Below are positions 209 through 15,934 of a DNA stretch of 16,220 bases, piece by piece. The stretch covers positions 1 to 16,220 of the forward strand of contig JASHYS010000275.1 of assembly GCA_030042915.1 (NCBI GenBank). The letters run 5' to 3'. The notes beneath the pieces were generated by a model. The model was given only the letters and a program-made list of their open reading frames with translations, did no database searches and was not told the DNA's origin. The DNA is from Acidobacteriaceae bacterium (lineage in GTDB: Bacteria > Acidobacteriota > Terriglobia > Terriglobales > Acidobacteriaceae). How positions within the stretch are numbered: position 1 is the stretch's first letter; each line of letters begins with the position of its first letter. Made by a program: the position numbers and the translations under genes.

Positions 209-224
209 TGCCGCAAAATAACAT
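209..224 (+). repeat. Left inverted repeat core of the IS
   Basis: The 16 bases tgccgcaaaataacat recur as an exact reverse complement at 1501-1516. They flank the transposase gene by 34 bases on this side. Confidence 0.85.
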
Positions 225-258
225 CTACTATTAGAATGTTTTATGCGATCCTGGTTGT

Positions 259-1482
259 ATGAATGCGACCAGGGTCAAGGAAGATATCGGCGTGTTCCGG
301 AAGGTCCTGGCCACTCTCAACGAGGCGCAACGGCGCTGGTTGGTGGGGCGTGAAGCGCTCCGGTTGGGACGCGGGGGCATTCAGCGCATGGTGGGAGCCA
401 GCGGTCTTTCGAAGCCAACCATCCTGAAGGGAATCCGTGAACTTCATGGCCAGCAAAGACTCTCTGCGGAGGAGGGGAGAGTACGGCAGCCCGGCGGAGG
501 GCGGAAACCGATTGAAGAGGGTGATCCGGGTTTTACGCGAGCACTGGAACGGGTGATGGATGAAAGCACAGTTGGCGATCCTATGTCTCCGTTGAAGTGG
601 AACAGCAAGTCGACCTACCAAATCCGGCAATACCTGGCAAGCCATGGTCATCGGGTCAGTGAGGACACCATCCAGCGACGACTTCGGAAACTCGACTACT
701 CGCTGCAGGCCAACCGGAAGGACAAGGAGGGCGAATCGCACGCCGACCGGGACCGGCAGTTTCGTTATATCAACGAGACCGCCAAGCGGTTTCTGAGGCG
801 CCGAGAGCCAGTGATTTTGGTGGACACCAAAAAGAAGGAGCGGGTAGGGAACTTCAAGAATAACGGGCGGAAATGGCGGAAGAAGCGTCAGGCGCCGAAG
901 GTAAACGTGTACGATTTCCCAAGTTTGGCCGAGGGCACGGCTATTCCCTACGGCGCCTACGACGTGCACCGCAATGAAGGGCTAGTGAACGTGGGAATGA
1001 CACACGACACGGCGGAGTTTGCCGTCGAAAGCATCCGGCGCTGGTGGCGGCAGTTCGGAGTTCGTCACTATCCCAATGCGAGGCGGTTGTTCATCTGCGC
1101 GGACAGCGGAGGAAGCAACGCTGCACGGAACCGGGCCTGGAAATATCACCTGCAAGAGTTCAGCGACGAGGCGGAATTGGAGATCGTGGTGGGGCACTAT
1201 CCGCCGGGGACGAGCAAGTGGAACAAGATCGAGCACCGGATGTTCTCCTTCATCAGCATGAACTGGAAAGGAGAGCCGCTGGTCAGTTTCGAAATTGTGG
1301 TCAACCTGATCAGCGCCACGAAAACGAACCAGGGGCTGCGCGTCAAAGCAGTCCTGGACAAGAGACGCTATGAAACCGGTGTCAAAATTAGCAGGGACCA
1401 GATGAAGACGCTGAATCTTCAGCCACACCGGCAGAACCCGGAGTGGAACTATTCGTTCTTCCCTCACGTCGGTCACTCGTAA
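259..1482 (+). CDS. ISAzo13 family transposase
   Basis: A 407-residue DDE transposase that would cut and rejoin the ends of its own element. The N-terminal third holds helix-turn-helix-like DNA-binding sequence (around residues 40-60, GASGLSKPTILKGIRELHG) followed by a basic linker with RQPGGGRK. The catalytic domain shows the expected acidic residues: D189 in VILVDTKKKE, D282 in LFICADSGGSN and E325 in SKWNKIEHRMFS. The last is a hallmark arrangement of the ISAzo13 group. Length matches the family and the frame is intact from the ATG at 259, so the element may still be active. No strong ribosome binding site precedes the ATG. The gene fills nearly the whole IS and has no operon partner. Confidence 0.93.
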   Translation: MNATRVKEDIGVFRKVLATLNEAQRRWLVGREALRLGRGGIQRMVGASGLSKPTILKGIRELHGQQRLSAEEGRVRQPGGGRKPIEEGDPGFTRALERVMDESTVGDPMSPLKWNSKSTYQIRQYLASHGHRVSEDTIQRRLRKLDYSLQANRKDKEGESHADRDRQFRYINETAKRFLRRREPVILVDTKKKERVGNFKNNGRKWRKKRQAPKVNVYDFPSLAEGTAIPYGAYDVHRNEGLVNVGMTHDTAEFAVESIRRWWRQFGVRHYPNARRLFICADSGGSNAARNRAWKYHLQEFSDEAELEIVVGHYPPGTSKWNKIEHRMFSFISMNWKGEPLVSFEIVVNLISATKTNQGLRVKAVLDKRRYETGVKISRDQMKTLNLQPHRQNPEWNYSFFPHVGHS

Positions 1483-1500
1483 ACCCTCAAAAAACGGTAA

Positions 1501-1516
1501 ATGTTATTTTGCGGCA
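1501..1516 (-). repeat. Right inverted repeat core of the IS
   Basis: The bases atgttattttgcggca are the exact reverse complement of the left core at 209-224. They start 18 bases after the transposase stop codon. Confidence 0.85.
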
Positions 1517-1620
1517 ATGCCTAAGTCAGTTGACGCGGCATGAACACACCTGGGGGTCTCACAGTCAACGTGGCGAGAAGAACCGGGATCACTTCCAGAA
1601 GCCCTGCAAAAGGAGGAGAG

Positions 1621-4758: not shown

Positions 4759-5451
4759 TTATCGAAAACCATTCGCCACGCTCGCCGATGCAAGCGACTC
4801 AGATTCACGTTGCGAACTACGGCTACTCGCGGGCGGCTTCGGCATTCCCGCCTGGCACACGCGCCGCACCGTGCGCACTGTGGTGCCCAACTCGGCCGCT
4901 ATCTGGCGCCAGCTACGGCCTGCCTCACGCAGCTCGAGTACCCGTGCTCGGTTAAATACAGCCCTGGGCCGGCCGATCGCTCTCCCGGACTTCGTGCCGT
5001 GCGTGCGGGCGTAGTCCATTCCCGAAACCACGCCCTCGCGAATGACATTCCGTTCCAGCTCGGCCATGGCGCCGATAATCGTGAACATCGCCTTACCCAT
5101 GGGCGTGCTGGTGTCCAAGGCCTCCTGGTGGCTGACGAAATCGATACCGAGGCTGCGAAATTCTGCGAGAGCCGTGACAAGCTGCTCAACGCTGCGCGCG
5201 AATCGATCGAAGCGCCAGACCAGCACCACATCGAACGCGCCGCGGCGCACATCGGCCATCAGGGCCTTTAGGCCTGGCCGGTCGGCCTTGGCGCCGCTCA
5301 TGCGATCGCTGTACACGCGCTCGACACTCCAGCCCCGCTGCTCTGCCATCTGACGCAGCGGCACTTCCTGGACCTCAGGATTCTGCTCGAAGGCGCCGGC
5401 ATCGCGCGTGCGAAGGTTCGTCGACACGCGGACGTACAGAGCGGCGCGCAT
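4759..5451 (-). CDS. Small serine recombinase (resolvase/invertase family)
   Basis: A 230-residue site-specific recombinase. The catalytic domain opens with MRAALYVRVS, with the nucleophile expected at S10. It continues through MSGAKADRPGLKALM and the arginine motif WRFDRFARS (R80, D82, R83, R86), DTSTPMGKAMFTIIGAMAELER (E helix) and GRPRAVF. A C-terminal helix-turn-helix follows (about residues 170-198, LREAGRSWRQIAAELGTTVRTVRR). Order and length match DNA invertases/resolvases. The frame runs open far upstream, but the family N-terminus begins exactly at the ATG at 5451, so the extension is not coding. No strong ribosome binding site is seen. It is transcribed away from the phage-like genes at 5725 onward and may be a second recombination module of the island or a separate insertion. 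Confidence 0.93.
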   Translation of the reverse strand: MRAALYVRVSTNLRTRDAGAFEQNPEVQEVPLRQMAEQRGWSVERVYSDRMSGAKADRPGLKALMADVRRGAFDVVLVWRFDRFARSVEQLVTALAEFRSLGIDFVSHQEALDTSTPMGKAMFTIIGAMAELERNVIREGVVSGMDYARTHGTKSGRAIGRPRAVFNRARVLELREAGRSWRQIAAELGTTVRTVRRVCQAGMPKPPASSRSSQRESESLASASVANGFR

Positions 5452-5724
5452 GCAGCCTGGCGTCACTGCGCTGAACTCCGCGGCCGGCAGTTCACCACGT
5501 GCAGCCCGGAACGCGTTTCCGCGGCGACCGGCCTTCGGCGAAGCTGCGCGTGAGCTGCTTCGCGGTTCCGCAGCACAGCCAGCACGCGGGCCCGGGTCGC
5601 CGGCGCGCCGTAGCTCGCTAATGACACACGGAAACGAAATCAAAACTTCCAATTTTTCGCAGCGGTTTTTGCTCGCGCGGATGATACCATCAGTTCCGAT
5701 GAGTGGGCGTTTTCGGTGGAAAAT

Positions 5725-6243
5725 ATGGCTCCTTTGAAAAACTCCAGGCACGAGCATTTTGCACAGCTTGTTGCATCCGGCCAAAGTCCAACAAAAGCTT
5801 ACACTTTGGCGGGCTACTCCGAGAAGGGCGCACACGCCAGTGCTAACCGACTGCTACGCGTTGCTACAGTCAGCGCAAGGGTCACTGAGCTTCAAAAGGC
5901 AGTGTCGGAGCGCGCCGTCGAAAAGGCCTCTGTTGATCGCGCCTGGGTACTCGCCCAACTCCGCGAGAACGCCGAACGGGCGATGCAGGCGGTCGAAGTG
6001 CTGGACAGCAAGGGCAAGCCGACCGGCGAATTCCGCTACGAGGGTGGAGTCGCAAACCGGGCCCTTGAGCTAATCGGGAAAGAACTCGGCATGTTCCGCG
6101 AGCGTCTGGAGATTAACTTCCTGGACAAGTTATTCGAGCGCATGACAGCCGATGAGCTCGATCTCTACGCCCGGACCGGCGCGCTCCCTGTGTGGTTCCA
6201 GTTCGCAACGTCTGGCACGGGAGCAAGCGATGCAGCAGCATGA
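5725..6243 (+). CDS. Terminase small subunit-like protein
   Basis: A 172-residue protein. The N-terminal 60 residues follow the Terminase_2 small-subunit pattern: HEHFAQLVASGQSPTKAYTL, then AGYSEKGAHASANRLL and VATVSARVTELQ. This is the helix-turn-helix that lets the small subunit recognise phage DNA and recruit the large packaging ATPase. A helical middle and a C-terminus with DELDLYARTGALP follow. The ATG at 5725 has GGTGG a few bases upstream; a GTG at 5716 is an alternative. The gene starts a plus-strand run and overlaps the next gene by 14 bases. No large terminase gene follows, which is unusual for a prophage but is known for phage satellites that carry their own small subunit. The family call is from pattern memory and is strong at the N-terminus only. 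Confidence 0.75.
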   Translation: MAPLKNSRHEHFAQLVASGQSPTKAYTLAGYSEKGAHASANRLLRVATVSARVTELQKAVSERAVEKASVDRAWVLAQLRENAERAMQAVEVLDSKGKPTGEFRYEGGVANRALELIGKELGMFRERLEINFLDKLFERMTADELDLYARTGALPVWFQFATSGTGASDAAA

Positions 6244-6607
6244 GCATCAGAATCGCGGGCGGCAGCTTTCAGGACCGCGACCGGGTGAGTTTCCTATCGG
6301 GTCGGAGCTTTCCCGAGCCCCGGCGCGGGCCATGCTCGATGCAAGAGCGGCAGTGTCGCAGCAAGAGCAACAGCTCGTGCTCGTGACGAGAATGGACCGC
6401 GAACTCGCACTGGATGGGGACGCGTGCGTCCAGATCCTCCGTGAGTGCGGCTTCATGCCCGCCGGCCCCATCGGTGTTGTGAGGTTCGATAAGATCCCGG
6501 ACGGCCTGAACGCGGAGGAAACGGAGAAATTTCTGACGGAGAAGGGCAAGGAGATCTGCTCACCATCGGGCGAGGCCACCACGGTGGTGTACCAAAAAGC
6601 ATTATGA
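6230..6607 (+). CDS. Hypothetical protein coupled to the terminase-like gene
   Basis: A 125-residue protein without a family I recognise. The ATG at 6230 lies inside the end of the upstream gene (14-base overlap), with GGGAG 6 bases upstream, so a start here is well supported and translation is probably coupled. An upstream start in the same frame at 6152 would run through the terminase-like gene and is rejected. The first 35 residues are Gln/Arg/Gly-rich and probably disordered. The rest has helix-forming stretches (AAVSQQEQQLVLVTRMDREL) and a compact end around GPIGVVRFDKIPDGL and AEETEKFLTEKGKEI. Its stop overlaps the next start as ATGA. Confidence 0.7.
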   Translation: MQQHEHQNRGRQLSGPRPGEFPIGSELSRAPARAMLDARAAVSQQEQQLVLVTRMDRELALDGDACVQILRECGFMPAGPIGVVRFDKIPDGLNAEETEKFLTEKGKEICSPSGEATTVVYQKAL

Positions 6608-6735
6608 AAACGAACAAACCGACGATTGAAAACATAGCCGCTTTTCTTCGCAAAAAGATTGACGCAACGGGAAGCAAACCGCGCCAAGGTGGCCTTAAGC
6701 TGCTTCCAGCGCCAACGAAATCCAACGGGGACTGA
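6604..6735 (+). CDS. Small basic protein, ATGA-coupled
   Basis: A 43-residue open frame starting at the ATG in ATGA at 6604, which overlaps the stop of the gene before it. It begins MKTNKPTIENIAAFLRKKID and ends in KLLPAPTKSNGD, with many Lys residues and one amphipathic helix. The exact stop-start overlap is the main evidence that it is translated. The next coding-like frame begins one base out of phase at the stop codon, so this may be the N-terminal half of a single protein of about 109 residues split by an indel. No family recognised. Confidence 0.5.
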   Translation: MKTNKPTIENIAAFLRKKIDATGSKPRQGGLKLLPAPTKSNGD

Positions 6736-6932
6736 CCCGCCGGCCTGACCTCCAACCACCAGCCGCGCCCGCAGAGCCAGCGCAAGTCGCTACCCAGACC
6801 TGGCTCGTATGCTCAGCGTGCAACCAGCAGTTACTGGACACCGAGTTCAAGTCGGAGGCTCGGAGCGCATTCGAGGCGTATCAGCAGGCCCAGCGCGGTG
6901 GCCGGCAGATTGCGCTGGGGTTCGGCGCGTGA
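6732..6932 (+). CDS. Coding-like frame without a normal start codon
   Basis: This frame reads a Pro/Ala-rich linker (DLQPPAAPAEPAQVATQ), then WLVCSACNQQLLDTEF and a charged helix (SEARSAFEAYQQAQRGG), stopping at 6930-6932. It looks real in composition and has one CxxC pair that could be half of a metal site. No ATG, GTG or TTG occurs in frame after the preceding in-frame stop. The only near-cognate start at the right place is CTG at 6732, which overlaps the TGA of the 43-residue frame (CTGA) and follows GGGG. Either it is translated by reinitiation at CTG, or it is the C-terminal half of the preceding small gene after a one-base frame change. Confidence 0.4.
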   Translation: MTRRPDLQPPAAPAEPAQVATQTWLVCSACNQQLLDTEFKSEARSAFEAYQQAQRGGRQIALGFGA

Positions 6933-6981
6933 ACTACGCTCCAGGCCGGGAGCACCTTCCCACTGGTAAACTGGTAACGCC

Positions 6982-7230
6982 ATGGCCCTCGAACAAGAGC
7001 TGAACACTTTTGAGGCGCTCAAAGCCGAGTTACTGAAAACGCATTCTGGCAAGTTTGCGCTAATCAAGGGCAACGAGTTTGTTGGCGCATTCGACACCGC
7101 CGCAAATGCCTACGAGGCCGGCGTTAAGCGCTTCGGCCGGGAAGCATTCCTTGTAAAGCGCATCAGCACGGAGGAAGAGGTCTACCATAACCAGGCGCTA
7201 GCGTTGGGGCTCATGAATGCCCGTATTTAG
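6982..7230 (+). CDS. Small conserved-type protein paired with an aspartic protease gene
   Basis: An 82-residue protein. Residues 10-60 carry LKAELLKTHSGKFALIKGNE, FVGAFDTAANAYEAG and REAFLVKRIS. This is a beta-alpha-beta pattern like small domains such as DUF5678, in which a strand is followed by a helix ending near a second strand. That resemblance is loose. The ATG at 6982 is the only good start. Its end overlaps the start of the next gene, an aspartic-protease remnant, by 14 bases. From memory, proteins of this size often precede retropepsin-like protease genes in soil bacteria, so the two may work as a pair. Here the partner is broken. Confidence 0.65.
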   Translation: MALEQELNTFEALKAELLKTHSGKFALIKGNEFVGAFDTAANAYEAGVKRFGREAFLVKRISTEEEVYHNQALALGLMNARI

Positions 7231-7601
7231 TTTCTTTCATTGGGAAGCAGAGGGCGGCGATCAGCTCGAACCCCACGGGCCACTTATTCAGGTGGAGATT
7301 GGGCTTCCTGGTGCATTGGACAGCCGTTCATGAGCAAAGTTTGCTGGATCTCGGAGTGCAGCCAATCGATGCCATCCCGACACGAACTCCAGCCGGCGCC
7401 GGGCGCTCTTTTGTCTACCCAACCAAGGTTTCATTTCCAGGACTGCAGGTGGCCGGGTTGCCAATGGACAGGGTAATAGGTAGCGAGCTTAAGTGGCACC
7501 TCCCAGACGGACGTGATGTCATAATGCTGCTAGGCCGCGATCTGCTTAAGTATTTCCTGCTGATTTATAACGGTAAAACATCCGAGGTGACTCTGGCGTT
7601 C
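7217..7601 (+). pseudogene. Retropepsin-like aspartic protease remnant, active site deleted
   Basis: Two frames together cover a retroviral-like aspartic protease of the single-domain bacterial type. From the ATG at 7217 the first frame reads MPVFSFFHWEAEGG through PLIQVEIGLPGAL, then stops at 7333. From about 7317 another frame continues TAVHEQSLLDLGVQPIDAIP, VYPTKVSFPGLQV and VIGSELKW. It ends with the family C-terminus VIMLLGRDLLKYFLLIYNG and SEVTLAF. In the family a linker and the catalytic D(T/S)GA motif stand between these halves. Here the strand before it joins directly to the residues just after it, so roughly 25 residues including the catalytic Asp are missing and the frame is shifted at the junction. 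The frame also runs on past the usual end at 7601 without a stop. The product cannot be an active protease. Confidence 0.65.
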
Positions 7602-7631
7602 TTCTCCTACTGGGATGGTGCGAACGAACCG

Positions 7632-7806
7632 ATGGCTAGACCTCGCGAGCAAACCGACGCGGCCGAGGTCGTTCGGCTACACCGGAGGCCTCAGCTTCCC
7701 GGCCATTGCGGAACGGCTAGGACTCGGCGTGGCCACGGTTCACCGGGCTTATCGTGCCGCCGTCGGTGGGCCGCGGCCGCGTTTCCAAAATCCCCTCAGC
7801 CCGTGA
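7632..7806 (+). pseudogene. Detached recombinase-type helix-turn-helix, frameshifted
   Basis: The frame starting at the ATG at 7632 reads MARPREQTDAAEVVRLH. After one extra base at about 7683 the next frame continues GGLSFPAIAERLGLGVATV and HRAYRAAVGG to a stop at 7804-7806. Joined, this matches the linker plus helix-turn-helix tail of serine recombinases: the intact recombinase at 4759-5451 has GRPRAVFNRARVLELREAG followed by RSWRQIAAELGTTVRTVRR. The catalytic domain is absent. It may be the leftover tail of a second recombinase or a small HTH regulator of the same origin. A plus-strand open frame starting at 7615 covers the HTH part. Confidence 0.5.
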
Positions 7807-7933
7807 TCGAGGCGGAGGTTATGCGGCCGCCTGCCGATCGTGGCGCGCTTCGAAAATGGCCGGTGGACATACCGCCGGTGAACAGGTTTTGGAAAGGCGG
7901 AGCGTTGCCGGAGCCGGCCACGCGGCCGGTGGC

Positions 7934-8461
7934 TCATCGAGAGGGTGCAGGGGTTTCACTCTTGATATCACACGCGAGGTCCGGTTTCATTCGCGGATCG
8001 TCCGTCACATTCTGGAAAACCATCATCCTGTATGCCCGTCCTCGCGTGCTCTGGCCCGGCGGAAGATTGAGGTTCTTCTTTTCTTCGGGCCAGAGGTGAA
8101 GCCATGACAGGGAACCATCTAAGTAATCAATGCTGACCGTGTACGTGCGCCCAGCCTGAGAAGCCTTTTTTACGCAATACACAGAATAGTCAGCGTCCGG
8201 TCCAGACACGGATACGTGATAAACAGTAAGGGTCTTGCTAAAGCCAACGCGCTCTTCAGTCGATACAGGTCTGACCTGCGTCGCTCTCGCGGAAAATGGA
8301 TCACCAATCTTCACAATCATTTTCATGGCGAGGCGATCGTCCGCACTCTTTTTGTCGCCGCCGAAGGCGAAGACGGCAACGCCGAACAACAATAGCAGGA
8401 GGCCCGGGTCCCTGAAGACCCGGGATTCACCGGCCATCCAGCCCCTACGCTTTCTTGGCAT
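7934..8461 (-). CDS. Membrane-anchored or exported hypothetical protein
   Basis: A protein of 175 residues from the ATG at 8461, or 167 from the ATG at 8437, which has the better ribosome binding site (AGGGG 4 bases upstream). The N-terminus carries a hydrophobic segment GLLLLLFGVAVFAFG after basic residues, a signal peptide or membrane anchor. The rest should lie outside the cytoplasm. It contains alternating strand-like stretches (KTLTVYHVSVSGPDADYSVY, TYTVSIDYLDGSLSWLHLW) and ends in a probably flexible SETPAPSR. No lipobox and no family recognised. It follows the gene ending at 8471 by 9 bases, so the two form a minus-strand operon inverted relative to the surrounding island genes, as is usual for cargo. 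Confidence 0.65.
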   Translation of the reverse strand: MPRKRRGWMAGESRVFRDPGLLLLLFGVAVFAFGGDKKSADDRLAMKMIVKIGDPFSARATQVRPVSTEERVGFSKTLTVYHVSVSGPDADYSVYCVKKASQAGRTYTVSIDYLDGSLSWLHLWPEEKKNLNLPPGQSTRGRAYRMMVFQNVTDDPRMKPDLACDIKSETPAPSR

Positions 8462-8470
8462 CCGAGAGAC

Positions 8471-8890
8471 CTACAGGGTTCCGCCGCTAACACACCGCCA
8501 GCCCCGTCGCGACAATTTGCCCGGCCACGCCGGGTCAGCTTTTGGAGCCGGAGAAAACAGGCGTACGCAGAAATACTGCGGCTTCTTGCCGCGTGGTTTT
8601 GGTGAAAAGCCGTTCCACTTTGCGCTGTCATACTGTCGGACCAACGAAAGAGTTTGATCGGCGCATCTTTCCAGGCCTCTTGTTACCGCGTGGATATCCT
8701 GCTCGAACCAATATTCCGACAGCCACGCCTCCAGGGCTTCGCGTGGCAGTCCCTCATTGCAGAGGTCGGATTCCTCAAGTACGGTACCTCCGCGTTCTTG
8801 GGCAATCGCGATCTCATCAGACTCCCGCCATGGCCCGAGAATAGTTGATCCCTTAAACCGCGGTCCGCTCCATCTTGTATCCATAGTCAT
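8471..8890 (-). CDS. Hypothetical protein, first gene of the inverted cassette
   Basis: A 139-residue, apparently cytoplasmic protein without a recognised family. GGGAG lies 4 bases before the ATG at 8890, and a second ATG two codons in (8884) is equally possible. It is rich in Trp, Glu and Arg: GPWRESDEIAIAQERGGTVL and EALEAWLSEYWFEQDIHAVT suggest alpha-helices. A basic region (GFSPKPRGKKPQYFCVR) and an Arg/Trp-rich tail (LSRRGWRCVSGGTL) follow. It is transcribed divergently from the excisionase-like gene at 9034, and the exported hypothetical protein lies 9 bases downstream. Confidence 0.6.
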   Translation of the reverse strand: MTMDTRWSGPRFKGSTILGPWRESDEIAIAQERGGTVLEESDLCNEGLPREALEAWLSEYWFEQDIHAVTRGLERCADQTLSLVRQYDSAKWNGFSPKPRGKKPQYFCVRLFSPAPKADPAWPGKLSRRGWRCVSGGTL

Positions 8891-9033
8891 CAGTCTCCCT
8901 TCGGCCAACGCTGCTGACGAATCTGCCGGCTCAAAACTCCGCCACGGGGGGATTTGGCCGGTGTAGGTGTATATAGATGCTCCATCCAATCAACCTCACC
9001 AGGCGCTGAAGTTGAACACAGCGGTGCCTGGCC
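8891..9033. promoter_or_regulatory. Divergent promoter region
   Basis: This spacer separates the minus-strand cassette (start 8890) from the plus-strand Xis-like gene (start 9034), so it must carry promoters in both directions. A TATATAG stretch at 8970-8976 could serve as a -10 box for the plus strand. No matching -35 box is clear. Confidence 0.35.
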
Positions 9034-9261
9034 ATGGAAGATAGAGCATTTCTCTCCACTCGCGCAGCGGCGAAGGAGTACGGAATCCCCTATTGGCTGC
9101 TGCTGGAAGGCGTACGAACCGGTCGCATCAAGACTGTGACGCTCTCGAAACGGCGATTGATTCCGGCCGAGGGCCTGCGGGCGTTTCTCGCCGAAGCCAA
9201 TCGACCGCACGTCGTCGGCCAACAGGCAATGGATTCAGCAGAAACTGCGGTCTCAGCTTGA
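9034..9261 (+). CDS. Excisionase/AlpA-like helix-turn-helix protein
   Basis: A 75-residue DNA-binding protein. It has the HTH_17 layout: LSTRAAAKEYGIPYWLLLEG (residues 7-26, helix-turn-helix), then VRTGRIKTVTLSKRRLIPAE (winged hairpin with Arg/Lys contacts) and GLRAFLAEA (closing helix). Proteins of this type act as excisionases that bend DNA at attachment sites, or as AlpA-like activators in phages and phage satellites. The start is the ATG at 9034; no strong ribosome binding site is seen. It stands at the head of the plus-strand replication-integration block, as expected for a regulator/excisionase. Confidence 0.8.
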   Translation: MEDRAFLSTRAAAKEYGIPYWLLLEGVRTGRIKTVTLSKRRLIPAEGLRAFLAEANRPHVVGQQAMDSAETAVSA

Positions 9262-9280
9262 ATGCAGGCCCTAAAAGAAT

Positions 9281-9311
9281 CGAGCCCACCGGCGCATTCC
9301 GTGTGGGCTCG
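9281..9311. other. 9-bp hairpin between the Xis-like and 50-residue genes
   Basis: CGAGCCCAC (9281-9289) pairs exactly with GTGGGCTCG (9303-9311) around 13 bases. On the plus strand only a weak T-containing tail (gtgttgtt) follows. On the minus strand the hairpin is followed by attctttt, which is closer to a terminator, yet no minus-strand gene ends here. It may be a terminator or attenuator between the Xis-like gene and the replication genes. Confidence 0.5.
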
Positions 9312-9330
9312 GGTGTTGTTGGGATGAGAC

Positions 9331-9483
9331 ATGAAAACTATAACATACATCGATGCGAATTCAGTCCGAGCCACCGCACGCCTCGTAGCAATCTGCTGGG
9401 CCTGGCAACTCCGAGACGCCGGCGAGCCTGCGCCCGACTTGCGCAAGTTGACGGCGCAAGTACTCCGCGAGGTGCGGCGGTGA
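9331..9483 (+). CDS. Small protein upstream of the replication gene
   Basis: A 50-residue open frame, MKTITYIDANSVRATARLVA followed by ICWAWQLRDAGEPAPDLRKL, ending in VLREVRR. It begins with a clear ATG, has a purine-rich GGGATGAGAC upstream, and is helix-rich and basic at the end. Its TGA overlaps a GTG (GTGA at 9480-9483), the same stop-start arrangement seen at 6604 and 11480, which points to coupling with the replication gene. Family not recognised. Confidence 0.55.
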   Translation: MKTITYIDANSVRATARLVAICWAWQLRDAGEPAPDLRKLTAQVLREVRR

Positions 9484-10060
9484 CTCGCGGTTCCCGCTGC
9501 AAGCACGGGATTACGAGGCCCTAAACGCCCGCTGGATAACGGGCGAACTGGCGGACTTGGCACAGATACGCCGCGTTTCTGATGCCGAGGGCGCGCTGAT
9601 TGTGGGGAAGAACGGATCCGGCAATTATGCTGGCCTGCTGATTCCGTATACTCTACCTGGTTCGTTTGATGTCCGCGGTTACCGCCTGCGAGTCGACCAT
9701 CCCGAGATGGACGAACACAATAAGCCCCGCTATAAGTACCTCGCCGAGCCCGGCAGCGCAAATAAGCTGTACTTCGCTCCAGTCACAGACCGGGCCTGGC
9801 TGCAAGACCCGAGCATCCCCATCGTTATCACCGAGGGCGAGTTCAAAACTATCAGCCTGTCGCGACTCGCACAACATAATTTGGGCGATGCAGCGGACCG
9901 GCCGGGGTTTCTTGCGCTCGGGTTGAGCGGAGTGTGGAATTGGCGCGGAACGATCGGCAAGACGGTGGATGCAAGCGGTACTCGCGTCGACCAGAAAGGC
10001 CCGATCGCGGACCTGGCTCTGGTTGAGTGGAAGCAACGCACCGTCACTATTTTTTTTTGA
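9480..10060 (+). CDS. Replication protein, N-terminal part (DUF3854/Toprim-like), frame interrupted
   Basis: This frame encodes the N-terminal half of a primase-like replication protein. Family-like sequence begins around 9485 with SRFPLQARDYEALNARWITG and ELADLAQIRRVSDAEGA. It continues with GNYAGLLIPYTLPG, VRGYRLRVDHPEM, the conserved PIVITEGEFKTISLSRLAQ and LGLSGVWNWRGTIGK. It then stops at TGA 10058-10060. TEGE is the expected first acidic motif of a Toprim fold. In the conserved frame no standard start occurs before a TTG at 9557, which would cut off family-like residues. The likely start is the GTG at 9480, which overlaps the upstream stop but needs a one-base frame change near 9485. 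The second Toprim motif lies in the next frame. Confidence 0.65.
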
Positions 10061-11483
10061 TGCCGATGTTGAGGGCAACCCAAAAGTCCGGCAGGCGCGC
10101 CATGGTCTTACCGATGAACTGAAAAGCCGCGGCGCCAAGGTGAAATGGGTCTTCTGGCCGAAAAAGCTTCCGGCTAGCGTCAAGGGCATCGACGATTACC
10201 TGGCGGCCCTGGGGCCGGAAGCCGCGCTCGAAATGCTGGGGAATGCACGAGCGGAAAAGGTCACGGCCGAGCACCAGGCGAAAGCAGCCAGGCAGTTCAC
10301 GGCATTGCGCGAGGATCTGTACCGACTCGATATTCCGGACCTTGGCATCACGTTTGAAATCGACCGGCTACGGCGTGAGCACCAGGAACTCATCGGCGAA
10401 CTGTGTGTGCGCTGCGACTTACCCGGGGCCCGTTCTTACGATGGAAACCTGAGCATCGCGGACTTTAACCTTTCATCCGCCAGAGCGAGGATTGATCGCG
10501 CCAAGCTCCTCAAGGACCGCGGCAAGGCGGCTGAGTTGGACTGGCTGCAAATGCTGGAAGAGTTTTGCCAGCGAGTTCTACAGGCCGAACGCCAGGGCAA
10601 GCCGGGCGTAGACCTGAGAACATTACCCCAACCGGAGGCAGACGATGCCGTGAAGGTCGTAGGCTTCACGCTGCCCAAGCGGCATCCCACGCTGTTCTTC
10701 GGTGATGGTGGCGCGGCGAAATCGTATTTTGCCCTTTATCTCGCCGGCTTACTTTCGAAACAGGGCACGGCCGTAGCATTCTTCGATTGGGAGCTCGCCG
10801 GCGAGGATCACCGCGACAGGCTTGAGCGGCTGTTTGGAAATCAGCAAATGCCGCGGATCATTTATGCGCGCTGCGACAGGCCGTTAGTCTCCGAGGTCGA
10901 CCGGCTGCGTCGTATCGTGCGCGAGCATGGCATCGAGTATTCGTTTTTCGATTCGGTCGCGTTTGCGTGCGATGGGCCGCCGGAGTCTGCAGAAGCCGCC
11001 GGCCGCTACTTCCGGGCCGTGCGACAGATCGGCGGCGGGTCGGCCCATTTAGCGCACATCACGAAGGGCGAGAACGGCGACCGGAAGCCGTTTGGCTCCA
11101 GTTTCTGGCACAATGGCGCGCGCTCGACGTGGTTTGTCGAGAGAGCCGAATCGGCCAGCGATCAAGTGATTGACGTTGCTTTCCATCACCGCAAGGCCAA
11201 CCTGGGCCGCCTGCACGCTCCCATTGGGTTTCAGATCACGTTTACCAATGACTGCACCGTGTTCAAGACCTCGGACGTTGCCGATAATCCCGACCTTGCG
11301 GTGAAAATGAGCATCCGCCAGCGAATGGCGTCTCTGTTACGCAGAGGCGCTATGACGCCGGAAGCGATCGCGGATGAGCTCGAAGTTGAAGTCGAAACCA
11401 TAAAACGGACAGTCCGGCGCTACAAAGCCATTTTCACAACAGTGAATGGCAGGTTTGCCTTGCTTGAAAAGGAGATAGCGTGA
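9969..11483 (+). CDS. Replication protein, C-terminal part: RecA-like helicase ATPase with winged helix
   Basis: The open frame runs from an ATG at 9969, but family-like sequence begins only at the T9 run (10050) with FFDADVEGNPKVRQARHGL and KKLPASVKGIDDYLAALGPE, the end of the DUF3854/Toprim domain. The first 27 residues are out-of-frame sequence. A helical linker leads to an AAA_25/RepA-type ATPase: Walker A GDGGAAKS at 10701-10724, Walker B around YSFFDSVAFACDG (about 10937-10975), and AHLAHITKGENGDRKPFGSS as sensor loop. The C-terminus holds a winged helix (RRGAMTPEAIADELEVEVET, IKRTVRRYKAIF). Joined to the upstream part, this makes a primase-helicase initiator of about 665 residues, the likely replication protein of the element. 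Its TGA overlaps the next start as GTGA. Confidence 0.8.
   Translation: MQAVLASTRKARSRTWLWLSGSNAPSLFFFDADVEGNPKVRQARHGLTDELKSRGAKVKWVFWPKKLPASVKGIDDYLAALGPEAALEMLGNARAEKVTAEHQAKAARQFTALREDLYRLDIPDLGITFEIDRLRREHQELIGELCVRCDLPGARSYDGNLSIADFNLSSARARIDRAKLLKDRGKAAELDWLQMLEEFCQRVLQAERQGKPGVDLRTLPQPEADDAVKVVGFTLPKRHPTLFFGDGGAAKSYFALYLAGLLSKQGTAVAFFDWELAGEDHRDRLERLFGNQQMPRIIYARCDRPLVSEVDRLRRIVREHGIEYSFFDSVAFACDGPPESAEAAGRYFRAVRQIGGGSAHLAHITKGENGDRKPFGSSFWHNGARSTWFVERAESASDQVIDVAFHHRKANLGRLHAPIGFQITFTNDCTVFKTSDVADNPDLAVKMSIRQRMASLLRRGAMTPEAIADELEVEVETIKRTVRRYKAIFTTVNGRFALLEKEIA
10050..10060 (+). other. T9 run with UUU-UGA: frame change site in the replication gene
   Basis: Nine consecutive T residues (10050-10058) are followed by GATGCC. 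In the upstream frame they read ATT TTT TTT TGA. Skipping one T gives TTT TTT GAT GCC GAT, restoring FFDADVE, the Toprim DxD motif. A +1 slip at UUU-UGA, slippage of RNA polymerase on the T run, a real mutation or a homopolymer error would all fit. Confidence 0.6.
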
Positions 11484-11556
11484 GCGGACAAAGTGTCCGG
11501 ACATTTCGGACACATCCAGCGGCGGACACACTCTCTCTCTTAGAGAGTGTCCGTCC
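11406..11556. repeat. Cluster of CGGAC/GTCCG inverted repeats at the end of the replication gene
   Basis: CGGAC or GTCCG occurs about eight times here. Ordered palindromes include CGGACaGTCCG (11406-11416), CGGACAaagTGTCCG (11485-11499) and GTGTCCG-N7-CGGACAC (11493-11513). A large hairpin joins CGGAC at 11523-11527 with GTCCG at 11549-11553, enclosing ACTCTCT/AGAGAGT. The read-out alternative is a perfect 9-bp stem at 11528-11550. Such a cluster next to an initiator gene could be a replication origin or the protein's operator. Confidence 0.55.
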
Positions 11557-11665
11557 GGTGTCATGGCCTGAATGGAAAGCCACAGCCGCGCTCGTGATCC
11601 AGTGGAAAGCCGCAAACGCTGAATTCGTCCGCAGCAAGAGTCAGGAGGCGACACCCGCGCCGTGA
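11480..11665 (+). CDS. Small protein coupled to the replication gene
   Basis: A 61-residue open frame starting at the GTG of a GTGA overlap with the stop of the helicase. It begins MSGQSVRTFRTHPAADTLSL, has a Trp-containing helical centre (SWPEWKATAALVIQWKAANA) and ends SKSQEATPAP. The stop-start overlap supports translation. The first third is formed by the palindrome cluster, so the DNA structure may matter more than the protein there. Family not recognised. Confidence 0.45.
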   Translation: MSGQSVRTFRTHPAADTLSLLESVRPVSWPEWKATAALVIQWKAANAEFVRSKSQEATPAP

Positions 11666-11733
11666 CGCCTTGCGATCCCAGTTCCGATATAATCCGACTC
11701 CTCCTCAACCACGAGGACGGAGAAGGAGATTTC

Positions 11734-12938
11734 ATGGCTGGACAGCGCTATCAGGATCCGAAAATTCAAACCCGGACGGACGTGGACCGTCCGTTCTACT
11801 TCATCCGCCCATACGTGCCGGTGATCACCAGCGACCGAATCGAGAGAAAGCAGAAATCTATCCCGATCGGCTTCTGCGATGAGACTTCGATGCGTGAAGC
11901 GAAGGCCCGTAAACAACAGGTCATGGCGACGGTAAACGCTGGCCGATTTGTGCTCCAGTCTCAAATTCAGTTCGGGGTCATGGCTCAGAAGTTCCTCGAT
12001 GCCCGTGTTCCCCAGCTCGGTAGTGCCACGCAAGACAAATACCGCACACACATCGCGAACCACATCCTGCCGGTGTTCGGCCCGCTCCAAATGTGCGACA
12101 TCGACAGGCCAACAGTGGAAGCCTGGCTGAGCGAGAAGGCGAAGCCGCACGTCGTGACTCTGAAGGGCGGAAAGACCGTGGAGCGCGAAGGCCTTGGATG
12201 GTGGGCGCGTCAGGATTTGCGGAATATCCTCAGCGCGATTTTCACTTACGCGAAGATTGCAGACTCTCGCAGGGTGAGAACCCGTGCACAGGTATCGACG
12301 CTGGGCAGAAGTGCTTCAAACGCAGAAAGCGAATTCCGAAAGCCGAAGACCTGGCCCGTTTTCTTGCGGCGCTCCCCGACACCTCGGTGTGTTCAGCCGA
12401 GGCTGCGCGCCTGATGGTGCTCACCGCGGTTGTAGCTGGACTGCGAATTTCCGAAGTGCTCGCACTAAAGCCTGAGGCCATCAGCCTGAAAGCTCAGATC
12501 CTCGACGTTCAGCGCCGTTGGCATCGCGGAGATGAGAGCGTTCCGAAATCCGAGAATTCCCAGCGGCGCCGGCAGATTGGTCCACTCGCCGCGGACTTAC
12601 TCCGGTTCGCGCACGGCAAGGCATCGGATGAATTCATCTTTGCCGGCGCCGACGGTAATCCGCCTGATGACCGCGATCTCCAGCATTACGTTTTCCGTCC
12701 GGCCGCCGAAGCCACGGGCATTTACTTCGAAGGATTCGGCATGCACACGTTCCGGCGCCTGAATATCACATGGCGGCAGGACGCCGGAGCCACGCCGTTC
12801 GAAGCGCAAAAAGCCGCGGGGCACGCGAAGCCTGATACAACCTGGCTCCACACCGTCACCGACGAGGCGCGCGAGCGTCAACACGTTCAACGGATCTGGG
12901 ACCGCATCACGGGACGGCCCACGGGAGGTGTCCAGTGA
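11734..12938 (+). pseudogene. Tyrosine recombinase (integrase), frameshifted, catalytic Tyr replaced
   Basis: This is the element's integrase, about 400 residues if joined. The ATG at 11734 has an excellent GGAGAAGGAG a few bases upstream. The first frame gives the N-terminal and core-binding domains (VMAQKFLDARVPQLG, YRTHIANHILPVFG, RQDLRNILSAIFTYAKIAD). Around 12265 one base appears to be missing, and the catalytic domain continues in another frame: QGENPCTGIDAGQK, then RIPKAEDLARFLAALPD. Catalytic residues seen are the Arg in VVAGLRISEVLALK and HTFRR (His and Arg). The GHAKPDTTWLHTVTDEARER segment has His where the family has the nucleophilic Tyr (LYT to LHT). The frame break and the lost Tyr both suggest the integrase is inactive. 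It lies directly next to the tRNA-derived attachment site. Confidence 0.85.
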
Positions 12939-12948
12939 TCAGACGTCC

Positions 12949-12998
12949 CCGTGCTTATCCGTGCTTAGTTGCCCCGTTCCGTGCTCAATCCGTGCTTA
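12949..12998 (+). repeat. Four CCGTGCTTA-type direct repeats, candidate integrase arm sites
   Basis: CCGTGCTTA occurs at 12949-12957, 12959-12967 and 12990-12998, and CCGTGCTCA at 12979-12987. Start-to-start spacings are 10, 20 and 11 bases, so the copies lie on one face of the helix. They begin 10 bases after the integrase stop and end about 60 bases before the tRNA fragment, where tyrosine integrases of phages and islands have arm-type binding sites. Confidence 0.6.
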
Positions 12999-13056
12999 AT
13001 CGGGTTTTCGTAAGTGCTTTGTTTTCAGTAAAAGTAGCGGTAACTCTAGGCTCTAG

Positions 13057-13106
13057 CTACCTTGACACGGTAGAGGTCACAGATTCGAGTTCTGTCGGGC
13101 CCACCA
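13057..13106 (+). other. attR: 3' half of a tRNA-Val(GAC) gene
   Basis: The sequence folds as the 3' part of a tRNA. The anticodon stem ctacc/ggtag encloses ttgacac (anticodon GAC, Val). Variable bases aggtc follow, then the T stem acaga/tctgt around TTCGAGT, the acceptor strand cgggccc, discriminator A and an encoded CCA ending at 13106. Upstream of 13057 there is no D arm and no matching acceptor strand, so the 5' half is absent. A 3' half next to an integrase gene is the standard scar of integration into a tRNA gene. The intact copy should lie at the other end of the element, to the left, and is not in this window. Confidence 0.8.
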
Positions 13107-13320
13107 TCTACGTCGCAATAACTCAACACTTAGCACGCTTGCCATTCACTTACGCCGTAAGGTACCTCGCCGTCTGGAGTCCAAACGGTAGCAGCCATCG
13201 ATGGCCGTTCGAGAAACGATTGAAGGGTGACGGCTTGAGCCGCAATAGATTCGAGATTCAGTTCGCCAGGCCGGCGCCTCGGGCGCAGCGTGCGAACGAG
13301 TCCTCGACCAATGGTGAGGC

Positions 13321-13584
13321 ATGACTTCGCAAGCGACGGCAACACGCCCCAAATCCAAACTTGGCCGATCGATCGGCTCGTTTTCTACGCCCGCAACCCC
13401 CGCAAGAATGACGCCGCTGTCGATCGAATGCTCCGACAGTTCGGATTCAAAATCCCAGTGCTTGCCCGCAGCGATGGCGAGGTTGTCGATGGCCACTCGA
13501 CGCCCGAAGGCTGCCTGCAAGCTCGGTATCAACGAAGTTCCCGTCATCCTCTGTGACCCCGGCGGCCAATGCCAATCCAGTTGA
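13321..13584 (+). pseudogene. ParB/Srx-like N-terminal domain fragment, multiply broken
   Basis: The conserved block of this domain is recognisable: QTWPIDRLVFYARNPRKND, FGFKIPVLARSDGEVVDGH, then KAACKLGINEVPVILCD. It is spread over two frames, changing near 13353 (start ATG at 13321 with MTSQATATRPK) and again near 13500. It also appears to lack a few residues between AAVDRM and QFGFKIP and ends abruptly after LCD. In phages and islands this domain often heads a protein with a DNA methyltransferase, or sits beside packaging genes; none of that remains. Between the tRNA fragment and this remnant (13107-13320) I see no convincing gene. Confidence 0.65.
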
Positions 13585-13631
13585 TACCTTATTCCATCCT
13601 TAAGCCAGGGCGAGTGTGAAATACTTGGGAC

Positions 13632-15110
13632 TTGCCTCATTCGTCAACACGCTCGCAAATCCATGCTCTGGAGTTCTGCTGCCGATCTCACTGCCGGCCC
13701 ACGCCGCGCAGCCTGCCTTTCCTCTTGTGCGTCCTAGCCATAGCTGCCTCAGCCCAGCAGTACGAAACCGTCATTGCGCACGGCCGTGTTATTGACCCGG
13801 AAACACGTCTCGATGCTGTACGCGATGTCGGTATCCAAAATGGCAAAATCGCTGCTATCTCTGAAACCCCGCTTGCAGGCGGCAGCGTTGTGGATGCCGG
13901 TGGGCTCGTCGTCACCGCCGGTTTCATTGACCTCCATCAGCATGGCCAGACGCCTGAAAACTACGCGTTCAAAGCGCGTGATGGCGTCACCACGGCTCTC
14001 GAGATGGAAGTCGGCGTCTCGCCCGTCGACGCCTGGTACCGCACGCGTGAAGGGAAGTCACTCATAAACTTCGGTGCAAGCGTCGGGCACATTCCCGTTC
14101 GTATGGCTGTGATGCACGATAGCGGTACATTTCTGCCGCACGACAGCGCCGTCAATACAATAGCTACTCCGGAACAGCTCGCAGCCATCCTTTCTCTGTT
14201 GCGCCAAGGTCTCGATGAAGGGGCCCTTGGTATCGGCATGGGCATCGCTTACGTGCCCGCTGCCACGCGCGATGAGATCTTTCGCGTCTTCCAACTCGCG
14301 GCCGAGCGCAAGACGCCCGTTTACGTCCACCTGCGCAGCTCGGGCCCTGTAGAGCCAGGCGGAATCGATGCCTTGCAGGAAGTGATGGCCGACGCTGTCG
14401 CAGCGGGCGCCTCGCTGCATGTCGTACACATCACCAGCACTGAGCTCCGCCAAACTCCGCTCGCGCTCAACCTGATCCACAGCGCTGCCGGTCACACTCT
14501 CGACTTTACAACCGAGGCCTATCCTTACACCGCCGGTATGACGGATATTGGCTCGGCCATTTTTTCGGAAGGTTGGCAGGACCGCAACGGTGGCATCAGT
14601 TACAACGACCTGCAATGGGCGGCCACGGGCGAACGCCTTACCGCCGAAACGTTCGCACGCTATCGCAAACAGGGCGGCATGGTTGCTATCCATGCCATTC
14701 CCGAAGATGTTGTCCGCGTCGCAATCGCCGACCCGGAGGTGATCGTTGCGAGCGACGGCATTCTGGATCATGGCAAAGGTCATCCGCGCGCCGCTGGAAC
14801 CTACGCGCGCGTCCTGGGCAAATATGTTCGTCAAGAGCACTTGCTTTCGCTTATGGACGCGCTCCGCAAAATGAGTTTCTTGCCCGCTCAGCGATTAAAT
14901 CTCTCCACTAAAGGCCGCCTTCAGATCGGCGCCGACGCGGACATCGTTGTTTTTGATCCGCAGCGCGTCATCGATCGCGCCACCTTTGAGAATCCCGCTC
15001 AATACTCCGAAGGCATCCCGCACGTCATGGTGAACGGCGTATGGGTGGTGAAAGACAGCCGTATCCAGGAAAACGTCTTTCCCGGTCGCGGTCTGCGCCG
15101 GGGTCAGTAG
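13632..15110 (+). CDS. Secreted amidohydrolase, D-aminoacylase / N-acyl-D-amino-acid deacylase type
   Basis: A metal-dependent amidohydrolase of 492 residues from the TTG at 13632. Expected metal ligands are visible: HxH in FIDLHQHG (residues 102 and 104), an acidic residue in LEMEVG (about 124-126), His in VYVHLRSSG (233), His in SLHVVHITST (263/266) and Asp in IVASDGILDHGKGH (375). The last segment, with GKGHPRAAGTYARVLGKYVR, is typical of the D-aminoacylase group, which removes acyl chains from N-acyl-D-amino acids. A hydrophobic stretch (SLPFLLCVLAIAASA) marks a signal peptide, so it probably acts outside the cytoplasm. The true start is unclear: the TTG has a poor ribosome binding site, no ATG or GTG lies in frame before the signal peptide, and an out-of-frame ATG lies near 13662. 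The 5' end may be damaged. The rest is intact. Confidence 0.88.
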   Translation: MPHSSTRSQIHALEFCCRSHCRPTPRSLPFLLCVLAIAASAQQYETVIAHGRVIDPETRLDAVRDVGIQNGKIAAISETPLAGGSVVDAGGLVVTAGFIDLHQHGQTPENYAFKARDGVTTALEMEVGVSPVDAWYRTREGKSLINFGASVGHIPVRMAVMHDSGTFLPHDSAVNTIATPEQLAAILSLLRQGLDEGALGIGMGIAYVPAATRDEIFRVFQLAAERKTPVYVHLRSSGPVEPGGIDALQEVMADAVAAGASLHVVHITSTELRQTPLALNLIHSAAGHTLDFTTEAYPYTAGMTDIGSAIFSEGWQDRNGGISYNDLQWAATGERLTAETFARYRKQGGMVAIHAIPEDVVRVAIADPEVIVASDGILDHGKGHPRAAGTYARVLGKYVRQEHLLSLMDALRKMSFLPAQRLNLSTKGRLQIGADADIVVFDPQRVIDRATFENPAQYSEGIPHVMVNGVWVVKDSRIQENVFPGRGLRRGQ

Positions 15111-15146
15111 CGCCTCGCTCCCAGGCCGCGAGGTAAGACGCTACGC

Positions 15147-15506
15147 TTAGTTGCTTCTGCCGGTTCCTCCGTGAAACGGGCGCACCTCGACCGGCGCCCG
15201 ACAGGCGACGGCGGCTTTGCGCCCCCACGCCAGCGCCTCGTTCAGGTCAGCAACCTCCAGCACCCAGAAGCCGCCGACATGCTCTTTGGTCTCCAGGTAT
15301 GGACCGTCGGTGATGAGCACATCACCAGCGGGCTGCACCCGCAGAGACTTCGCGCTGCTTGGCGGCTGCAGACCGCCAACGAAAATCCTGACACCAGCAG
15401 CCTTCATCTCGTCGTTGAGCGCATCGATATCGCGGGACATCGCTTCGTCCTCTGTGGACGCGTCGTAGTCGTCGGGGCGGTGAATAGCAACCAAATACTT
15501 CTTCAT
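15147..15506 (-). CDS. DGPF / YciI-like (YCII-related) family protein
   Basis: A 119-residue cytoplasmic protein of the YCII-related group. It begins MKKYLVAIHRPDDYDAS. The family centre is clear: VRIFVGGLQPPSSAKSLRV, then VLITDGPYLETKEHVGGFWV (the DGPF-type motif) and LEVADLNEALAWGRKAA, ending in PVEVRPFHGG. These proteins adopt a ferredoxin-like fold. Their chemistry is mostly unproven, and they often accompany ECF sigma factor genes, which are not seen here. The ATG at 15506 is preceded by GGAGA 4 bases upstream and matches the family start, so a longer frame upstream to 15800 is rejected. It converges with the amidohydrolase gene across a 36-base gap. Confidence 0.9.
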   Translation of the reverse strand: MKKYLVAIHRPDDYDASTEDEAMSRDIDALNDEMKAAGVRIFVGGLQPPSSAKSLRVQPAGDVLITDGPYLETKEHVGGFWVLEVADLNEALAWGRKAAVACRAPVEVRPFHGGTGRSN

Positions 15507-15934
15507 GACTTCTCCTGTAATGGTCTTCTGGAAGGCCGCTTGTTGGTCTCCCTTCATTATCTCGACGAACGGGCGGCCCGGGAATCGACAGATGGTCCAG
15601 GAAATTATTCCGGCTGCACCGTTGAAGGAGTTGCGAACGGGTTCGTACGCCATCTCGGGCGAGTCGTCCTGCTGGCCGAGGGTTTGGGCCGAGCTGCCGG
15701 GAAGCCCGATGAGCAGGCGATGAGGAACAGGTTGAGGGAATTGCTGCGGGGCTGAGTGCAATCCCTGAAAGACCGTTCGCAGCCGTTTGCAGTTGGCCAA
15801 GACGCTATCGGCCGGGCTTTGGCGAATTTAAGAAAGCGGGCTACAAGGAGTGGCTGACGATCGAATCGAAATTCGACCCGGAAGCGGGCGAGTGTTGCAA
15901 TACCTGGAACAGCAGTGCGCCGAGGCTTGAAGCC
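15507..15934. other. Spacer with possible gene remnants
   Basis: No intact gene is seen. A plus-strand frame at about 15815-15915 reads GFGEFKKAGYKEWLTIESKF, resembling the last strand-helix of sugar-phosphate-isomerase-type TIM barrels (GY-x-GWLTIE). It is followed by residues without clear homology and has no start. It may be the worn end of a lost gene. Other frames here are antisense to each other and lack motifs. Confidence 0.3.

What the first reader, a model, noticed from the sequence alone, without database searches (positions are those of the whole stretch)
5725..13106. Satellite-like integrated island: TerS-like, Xis-like, primase-helicase, integrase and tRNA att site without structural phage genes
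The sequence shows, mostly on one strand, a terminase-small-subunit-like gene, small coupled genes, an AlpA/Xis-like HTH, a Toprim plus RecA-ATPase replication gene, a tyrosine integrase and a tRNA-Val 3' half. Known phage satellites (SaPI/PICI types) combine integrase, Xis/AlpA, primase-replication genes and their own small terminase, and lack capsid and large terminase genes. That an acidobacterium-like host carries such an element is inference. The left end is not in view, so missing structural genes could lie further left.
Basis: partly seen in the sequence, partly recalled or inferred. Interest (0 to 1): 0.72.

Follow-up and report, generated by a model that had tools for sequence, protein, structure and literature searches.

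The report
Decayed phage-satellite-like island in acidobacterium
This stretch holds the right end of a decayed mobile island that looks like a phage satellite (a parasite of bacterial viruses) sitting in a tRNA gene of an acidobacterium, and apparently complete relatives suggest that such satellites occur in this bacterial phylum.

Summary
The observed parts are real: a phage small-terminase gene (TerS, 5725-6243) overlapped by a small gene, a Toprim plus RecA-type replication gene, a tyrosine integrase, and a tRNA-Val(GAC) 3' half (13056-13106). A sister genome (G220) shows the right boundary: 90% identity right of the tRNA half, 59% left of it, intact tRNA-Val on another contig, a related integrase at the same site. 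The left end is outside the window. No structural gene or remnant was found in the visible 13 kb. Related phages mostly have a large terminase after this TerS. Relatives in the phylum form units between perfect tRNA repeats: 8.4 kb (TerS, primase, helicase, resolvase, integrase; the window's order) and 8.2 kb (integrase, the window's replication family, TerS, capsid). Each shares only one gene family with the window by BLAST. Best reading: decayed TerS-encoding phage satellite (0.55); rivals: prophage remnant, helper-independent element. Not filed as a PICI: phage records carry the same tRNA-Val half, and helper dependence is untestable here. No paper in the searched library holds both 'phage satellite' and 'Acidobacteri'.

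The parts
5611..5724 (+). leader upstream of TerS; read in frame it matches the N-terminal extension of the TerS homologue P0124 at 36 of 37 residues, more than TerS itself (83%); possible promoter or packaging site
   Evidence: function is inference
5725..6243 (+). phage terminase small subunit (TerS), 172 aa, frame open
   Evidence: PF03592 3e-8, phrog_51 5.5e-21; 164 homologues
6230..6607 (+). 125-aa gene overlapping the TerS stop, unknown function; probably paired with TerS on two other contigs
   Evidence: pairing inferred from equal contig length and source
6982..7230 (+). small gene, DUF5678-like, below cut-off
   Evidence: E 0.0018
9034..9261 (+). small HTH-like protein, possible Xis/AlpA
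   Evidence: HTH_17 E 0.091, not significant; position only
9482..11483 (+). replication gene: DUF3854 Toprim part plus AAA_25 RecA-type ATPase and C-terminal winged-helix-like part; frame broken near 10,050 and start codon unclear
11734..12938 (+). tyrosine integrase, frame broken near 12,253; intact relatives L273 928-2199 and L289 4331-5512
13056..13106 (+). tRNA-Val(GAC) 3' half (anticodon arm to CCA) = right attachment site; right end of the element
   Evidence: 51 nt, 100% to the intact tRNA-Val region of G220; identity to G220 59% left, 90% right of it
4759..5451 (-). serine recombinase (resolvase/invertase type), probably accessory
   Evidence: PF00239 9.3e-41, phrog_125 4.3e-50
13725..15110 (+). 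host flank: amidohydrolase, 93% to the G220 orthologue

Best explanation
The region is the int-proximal part of a phage-satellite-like island inserted in tRNA-Val(GAC) of an acidobacterium, probably of the order Bryobacterales. In a working relative the integrase (with an excision factor) would cut the island out of the tRNA gene, the Toprim/RecA-type protein would replicate the circle, and the island's TerS would bind its own packaging site and direct the large terminase, heads and tails of a helper phage onto satellite DNA. This copy is decayed: the replication and integrase frames are broken. Shown: gene identities, right boundary, broken frames. Inferred from relatives: the satellite status of this copy. 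Inferred from the known role of satellite TerS proteins: helper dependence and redirection of packaging.
For: Of 2440 proteins (60 aa or more) called on IMG/VR phage-record loci, those matching the window left of its att at E<=1e-3 hit only the TerS (77 proteins), serine recombinase (2) and replication (56) genes and one 27-residue stretch (1, an 81-aa protein). Of the first 40 of 80 IMG/VR TerS loci, 35 have 1.5 kb or more downstream and 34 of those have an ORF of 300 aa or more within 2.5 kb; of 35 such ORFs scanned, 19 match phrog_2 and 14 phrog_38, both large terminase. The window has a 125-aa gene there. L222: 47-bp perfect tRNA-Arg repeat, 8.4 kb, TerS-primase-AAA_25-resolvase-int as in the window's order. 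L008: 46-bp perfect tRNA-Lys repeat, 8.2 kb, int, primase-like gene, same Rep family (58%), weak TerS, capsid. PHROG scan of 41 proteins called in L008, L222, L239 and L013: phrog_1 integrase 4, phrog_66 excisionase 3, phrog_51 TerS 2, capsid 1, and no large terminase, portal or tail among the 25 of 43 families shown; control, 29 length-picked proteins from two of three pieces of phage record G267: large terminase, portal, protease, capsid, tape measure. L247: TerS of the same PHROG family (phrog_51 7.5e-33) again not followed by a large terminase. Same tRNA-Val site in G220: intact tRNA-Val, TerS (phrog_83 3.5e-15), capsid start (weak, phrog_10 0.0021), integrase and att half, on two contigs.
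Against: No left att in the window, so structural genes further left are not excluded. Two frames are broken. By tblastn at E<=1e-3 L222 matches the window in TerS only (35%; its helicase and integrase do not), L008 in Rep only, G220 in the integrase only on the island side. No locus of 184 matched both the window's TerS and Rep; the single-sequence TerS query also matched 0 of 10 Rep-bearing genomes, though a TerS is present in L013, so these queries are insensitive. The Rep family is also a phage gene: 16 of 28 IMG/VR Rep records examined (of 59 loci) hold a phrog_2 large terminase, and a tree mixes satellite-like and phage copies. The tRNA-Val half occurs in phage records L290 (large terminase phrog_15 3.2e-212) and L291. 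The Xis gene is not significant. In L013, L008 and L016 Rep precedes TerS, so of four relatives with both genes recognised only L222 has the window's order. L241 has a large terminase.
Confidence: 0.55

Rival explanations
1. Cryptic prophage remnant: a temperate phage in tRNA-Val that lost its structural genes by deletion, with the surviving early genes decaying.
For: Two broken frames; an IS element in the visible left part; phage records share the replication family, the TerS family and the tRNA-Val half; left end unseen.
Against: No structural remnant in the visible 13 kb. TerS is followed by a small gene that seems paired with TerS on two other contigs, so probably not a deletion scar. In 12 of 16 phage records with both genes the large terminase lies downstream of Rep on the same strand (2 upstream, 2 opposite), whereas here TerS lies upstream of Rep; a like order exists in an 8.4-kb unit with both att repeats (L222).
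Confidence: 0.28
2. Integrative element that moves or replicates without a helper phage (integrated plasmid or IME-like), in which TerS is a captured gene, perhaps a DNA-binding regulator.
For: The replication protein family is common (at least 1147 homologues at E<=1e-3), has exchangeable N-terminal parts and gave no match in 50,697 phage records of INPHARED; secreted-protein cargo on the left.
Against: TerS genes of different PHROG families recur in such units (phrog_51, phrog_2538, phrog_1496, phrog_83) and capsid genes in three (L008 and L289 clear, G220 weak), which points to packaging. No relaxase or conjugation family was matched in the ORFs scanned, but none was searched for by name.
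Confidence: 0.13

Closest known systems
Phage-inducible chromosomal islands (PICI/SaPI)
   Same: Integrase, own replication gene, own TerS, no structural genes in view, small att-delimited relatives (8-14 kb)
   Different: Replication protein is a DUF3854 Toprim plus RecA-type ATPase family shared with phage records; phage records carry the same tRNA-Val half; host is an acidobacterium; no helper known; this copy decayed
Capsid-forming PICI (cf-PICI)
   Same: Relatives L008, L289 and (weakly) G220 carry capsid genes (with TerS in L008 and G220, with a prohead protease in L289)
   Different: No capsid gene in the visible window; no portal or large terminase recognised in L008, whereas cf-PICIs are recalled (no call) to carry a fuller head set
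PICMI, VEIME, Tycheposon and Streptomyces satellites
   Same: Small elements that rely on phage particles
   Different: Other hosts; named from the introduction of PMC10803314 and passages of PMC11389934; gene-level comparison not done
IMG/VR phage records L021 (51.6 kb) and L291 (39.8 kb)
   Same: Replication family (L021); integrase (39-44% to the window's pieces) plus tRNA-Val half (L291)
   Different: L021 has large terminase, portal, capsid and tail genes; L291 is longer, but no portal was found in it (PF04860) and its terminase-sized gene matches only phrog_5902 of unknown function

Membership tests
[quoted passage not shown]
   no structural match in the visible 13 kb; left end not in view; lysis genes not searched for separately
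PICI | att sites never occupied by prophages (PMC6092414) | tested here: not met
   the same tRNA-Val 3' half lies in IMG/VR phage records L290 (with large terminase) and L291 (with integrase); indirect, as integration of these phages was not seen
PICI | own integrase | tested here: met
   PF14659 and PF00589; frame broken; intact at the same site in G220
PICI | AlpA/Stl-type regulator or excision factor | tested here: inconclusive
   9034-9261 HTH_17 E 0.091
PICI | own replication module | tested here: met
   Toprim plus AAA_25; homology to PICI Pri-Rep not tested; broken here
PICI | TerS or helper cos/pac site for packaging | tested here: met
   TerS by Pfam and PHROGs; cos/pac site not identified
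PICI | size around 15 kb | tested here: inconclusive
   at least 13.1 kb if one unit; left end unseen; relatives 8.2-14.4 kb
PICI | interference with and dependence on a helper phage | not testable with these tools
   needs culture
cf-PICI | own capsid genes | tested here: not met
   none in the visible part; present in relatives L008, L289 and weakly G220
complete or remnant prophage | large terminase, portal, capsid or tail genes or their remnants | tested here: not met
   visible 13 kb only
ICE/IME | relaxase or conjugation genes | not tested
   no such Pfam match in ORFs scanned, no dedicated search; left end unseen

The most novel reading that the evidence does not exclude
Acidobacteriota carry an undescribed assemblage of tRNA-integrated phage satellites (about 8-14 kb) that trade replication genes with phages and carry TerS genes of several kinds; some add a capsid gene without a recognised portal or large terminase, and some (L241, L247, L012) carry a tape-measure gene, with TerS or large terminase, without recognised head genes. 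The window is a decayed member.
Probability: 0.5. Interest if true: 0.68.

Novelty: new variant of a known kind. Interest (0 to 1): 0.5.

Why it matters
The introduction of PMC10803314 places PICIs in Firmicutes and Gammaproteobacteria, and passages of PMC11389934 name Cyanobacteria and Actinobacteria for newer satellites. Satellites in another large phylum, with different replication genes and small capsid or tail modules, would suggest that TerS-based hijacking is general, and would give concrete loci (L008, L222, G220, L247) to test. The window itself only points to the family, because it is broken and incomplete.

Tried and rejected
Own genome: none held. Left att copy in the window: none. 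The tRNA-Val that ARAGORN reports in L273 was rejected: its 5' half does not pair well and only the 3' half is conserved; the real tRNA-Val of G220 is on contig C264. My first idea of a second frame break near 9,490 was dropped after P0003 aligned in one frame from 9,482. Rep as a marker separating satellites from phages failed: labels, which I set myself for 26 of 59 rows, partly by eye and partly without att repeats, are mixed on the tree (8 changes; shuffled mean 8.3, as low in 113 of 200). A degenerate search for the TerS leader in IMG/VR gave 0 matches. A search for the L273 integrase in IMG/VR gave no relatives, although L289 and L291, found through the tRNA pattern, carry relatives; so that scan misses relatives. 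Portal PF04860 in L289, L290 and L291: 0 of 3. Defence genes among 10 proteins: only one marginal hit, of the serine recombinase. Att repeats: none convincing for L013, L016, L009, L007, L015, L023, L224, L238 and L251; L242 has 17-24 bp only. The amidohydrolase orthologues of G043, G045, G048, G044, G208, G206, G145 and G052 were fetched; ARAGORN finds no tRNA-Val in those stretches, so they give no empty site. Rfam: 0 matches in the window. A class-wide survey did not complete.
Full report
What is there. The window is listed as a contig of 16,220 bases without a held genome. TerS lies at 5725-6243 (PF03592 3e-8, phrog_51 5.5e-21). Its stop is overlapped by a 125-aa gene (6230-6607). Small genes follow, then a weak HTH gene (9034-9261; HTH_17 E 0.091), a DUF3854 Toprim plus AAA_25 replication gene (9482-11483), a tyrosine integrase (11734-12938) and a 51-nt tRNA-Val(GAC) 3' half (13056-13106). 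The replication gene is split between two frames near 10,050 (P0002 aligns at 82% and 81% in two frames). The integrase is split near 12,253. Intact relatives of both exist. To the left lie a serine recombinase (4759-5451), two secreted-protein-like genes, one with a weak PEP-CTERM match, and an ISAzo13-type element (200-1525, 29-nt inverted repeats).

The right boundary. An amidohydrolase search over 257 genomes of the order of G003 found a 93% orthologue in G220. G003 holds L008, whose record is titled Solibacteraceae, a family that NCBI places in Bryobacterales; so the host order is an inference. Window 13010-15579 aligns to G220 at 90.7%. Around the tRNA half the identity is 59% for 100 bp to the left, 100% over 52 bp, and 90% for 100 bp to the right. 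G220 has a whole tRNA-Val on another contig. Next to that tRNA follow element genes including a P27-type TerS (phrog_83 3.5e-15) and the start of a capsid gene (phrog_10 0.0021, weak, cut by the contig end). On the contig with the tRNA half there is an intact integrase, 54-55% identical to the window's pieces. That the two G220 contigs are the two ends of one element is inference. The site is therefore an integration site occupied by related but different elements in two close hosts. The tRNA half lies at the right end, so the intact tRNA and the left end should lie left of position 1; no second att copy is in the window.

Satellite or prophage. The replication family is large (at least 1147 homologues) and belongs to phages as well: of 28 IMG/VR records examined, out of 59 loci, 16 carry a phrog_2 large terminase, and the record of L021 has large terminase, portal, capsid and tape measure. 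A tree of 59 copies does not separate the two kinds. The decision rests on content and order. Of 2440 phage-record proteins, those matching the window left of the att hit only TerS (77), the replication gene (56), the serine recombinase (2) and one 27-residue stretch (1). In phage records this TerS family is mostly followed by a large terminase: 34 of 35 loci with enough sequence, out of the first 40 of 80 listed, have an ORF of 300 aa or more within 2.5 kb. Of 35 ORFs scanned (those 34 and L127), 19 match phrog_2 and 14 match phrog_38, both large terminase; the tool does not give the union, and at least one (L105) matched nothing. In the window the next gene is the 125-aa gene. In 12 of 16 phage records the large terminase is downstream of Rep on the same strand, in 2 on the opposite strand and in 2 upstream.

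Relatives. L222 (1.03-Mb contig): 47-bp perfect tRNA-Arg repeat, 8.4 kb, TerS, primase (phrog_239 2.9e-19), AAA_25 helicase (1.6e-22), resolvase (phrog_95, phrog_125), integrase (PF00589 8.7e-20). Its TerS is weak in Pfam (E 0.0092) but was found with the TerS profile and matches the window TerS at 35%; its helicase and integrase do not match the window at E<=1e-3. L008 (Solibacteraceae): 46-bp perfect tRNA-Lys repeat, 8.2 kb, integrase, a CHC2-like gene (by eye), the window's Rep family at 58%, a weak TerS (phrog_1496 3.7e-4) and an HK97 capsid gene (PF05065 5.1e-30); only Rep matches the window. L239: 45-bp perfect tRNA-Phe repeat, 10.8 kb, with the Rep family, integrase and two proteins of 515 and 522 aa without PHROG match; no TerS recognised. 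L013: Rep, TerS (PF03592 2.9e-14), excisionase (phrog_66) and integrase beside tRNA-Ala, host-like genes on both sides by eye, no att repeat found. L016: Rep, TerS (phrog_2538 5.4e-9), serine integrase (phrog_95 3.2e-81) overlapping tRNA-Glu, no repeat found. L241: 29-bp 96.6% repeat, 14.4 kb, with large terminase (phrog_9) and tape measure, so 'no large terminase' does not hold for all relatives. L247: 24-bp repeat of tRNA-Leu, 14.2 kb, TerS (phrog_51 7.5e-33) directly followed by a tape-measure gene (phrog_3779 3.9e-15), then an integrase at the tRNA; a second integrase inside means that the interval may be two elements. In the PHROG scan of 41 proteins called in L008, L222, L239 and L013, the 25 of 43 families shown include no large terminase, portal or tail family; 18 families were not shown.

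How it likely works. Shown: gene identities, right boundary, broken frames, att-delimited relatives. Inferred: excision by the integrase, replication by the Toprim/RecA-type protein, and redirection of a helper phage's large terminase by the island's own TerS, as described for SaPI TerS proteins (passages of PMC6092414). This copy is probably immobile.

Comparison. Criteria for PICIs were seen in passages of PMC6092414, the introduction of PMC10803314 was read, and passages of PMC11389934 were seen. One criterion, att sites not used by prophages, is not met on indirect evidence: L290, a phage record with large terminase, and L291, a 39.8-kb record with an integrase 39-44% identical to the window's pieces, carry the same tRNA-Val half; a portal was not found in either. 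The element may work like a satellite but is not filed as a PICI. Literature: no paper holds 'phage satellite' together with 'Acidobacteri'. A whole-word search with 'Acidobacteri' is uninformative for the phylum, because the stem is not a whole word. One paper held Acidobacteri, prophage, integrase and terminase small subunit together and concerns a Paenarthrobacter (listing only). A search for phage satellite, satellites, soil and metagenom gave 21 papers, of which I saw the listing of 10. The soil satellites that PMC11389934 cites are those of Streptomyces. These searches cover open-licence PubMed Central papers only.

Frequency. In the order, 28 of 257 genomes match the Rep query at E<=1e-3, but only 7 at 1e-20 or better; many of the others match only in the Toprim part. 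In a phylum sample, 9 of 396 match at 1e-20. The TerS profile matches 13 of 257.

Change of odds. After rechecking I added results that I had left out: that each of L222, L008 and G220 shares only one island gene family with the window by BLAST, and that no locus of 184 matched both the window's TerS and Rep. I lowered the satellite reading from 0.60 to 0.55 and raised the prophage-remnant reading from 0.25 to 0.28 and the helper-independent reading from 0.12 to 0.13 for that reason.

Noticed in passing
L241 60-14500, L012 10028-21297, L247 339-14652: Three elements with a 1000-1300-aa tape-measure gene and an integrase but no portal or capsid recognised: L241 and L012 with the Rep family and a large terminase, L247 with TerS directly before the tape measure. 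L241 and L247 lie between tRNA-Leu repeats (29 and 24 bp). Possible tail-type satellites.
   Followed up: partly
L289 140-5646: IMG/VR record with prohead protease and capsid genes near an integrase (59-63% to the window's) and an intact tRNA-Val(GAC): capsid-carrying element at the same kind of site.
   Followed up: partly
L239 3278-14152: 10.8-kb unit between perfect 45-bp tRNA-Phe repeats with two proteins of 515 and 522 aa that match no PHROG family.
   Followed up: partly
window 5611-5724: Region upstream of TerS is more conserved (36 of 37 in-frame residues against P0124) than TerS itself (83%); candidate promoter or packaging site.
   Followed up: partly
window 9482-11483: The replication ATPase family has exchangeable N-terminal parts in relatives (precomputed Pfam: DUF3854, DnaB N-domain PF00772, PF01807, PF09250, or none).
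   Followed up: no
window 7218-7584: Pieces in two frames that look like a broken retropepsin-type protease gene (recalled resemblance; no family match for the piece scanned).
   Followed up: no
window 200-1525: ISAzo13-type insertion sequence with 29-nt terminal inverted repeats (83% complementary) and an open transposase frame.
   Followed up: no
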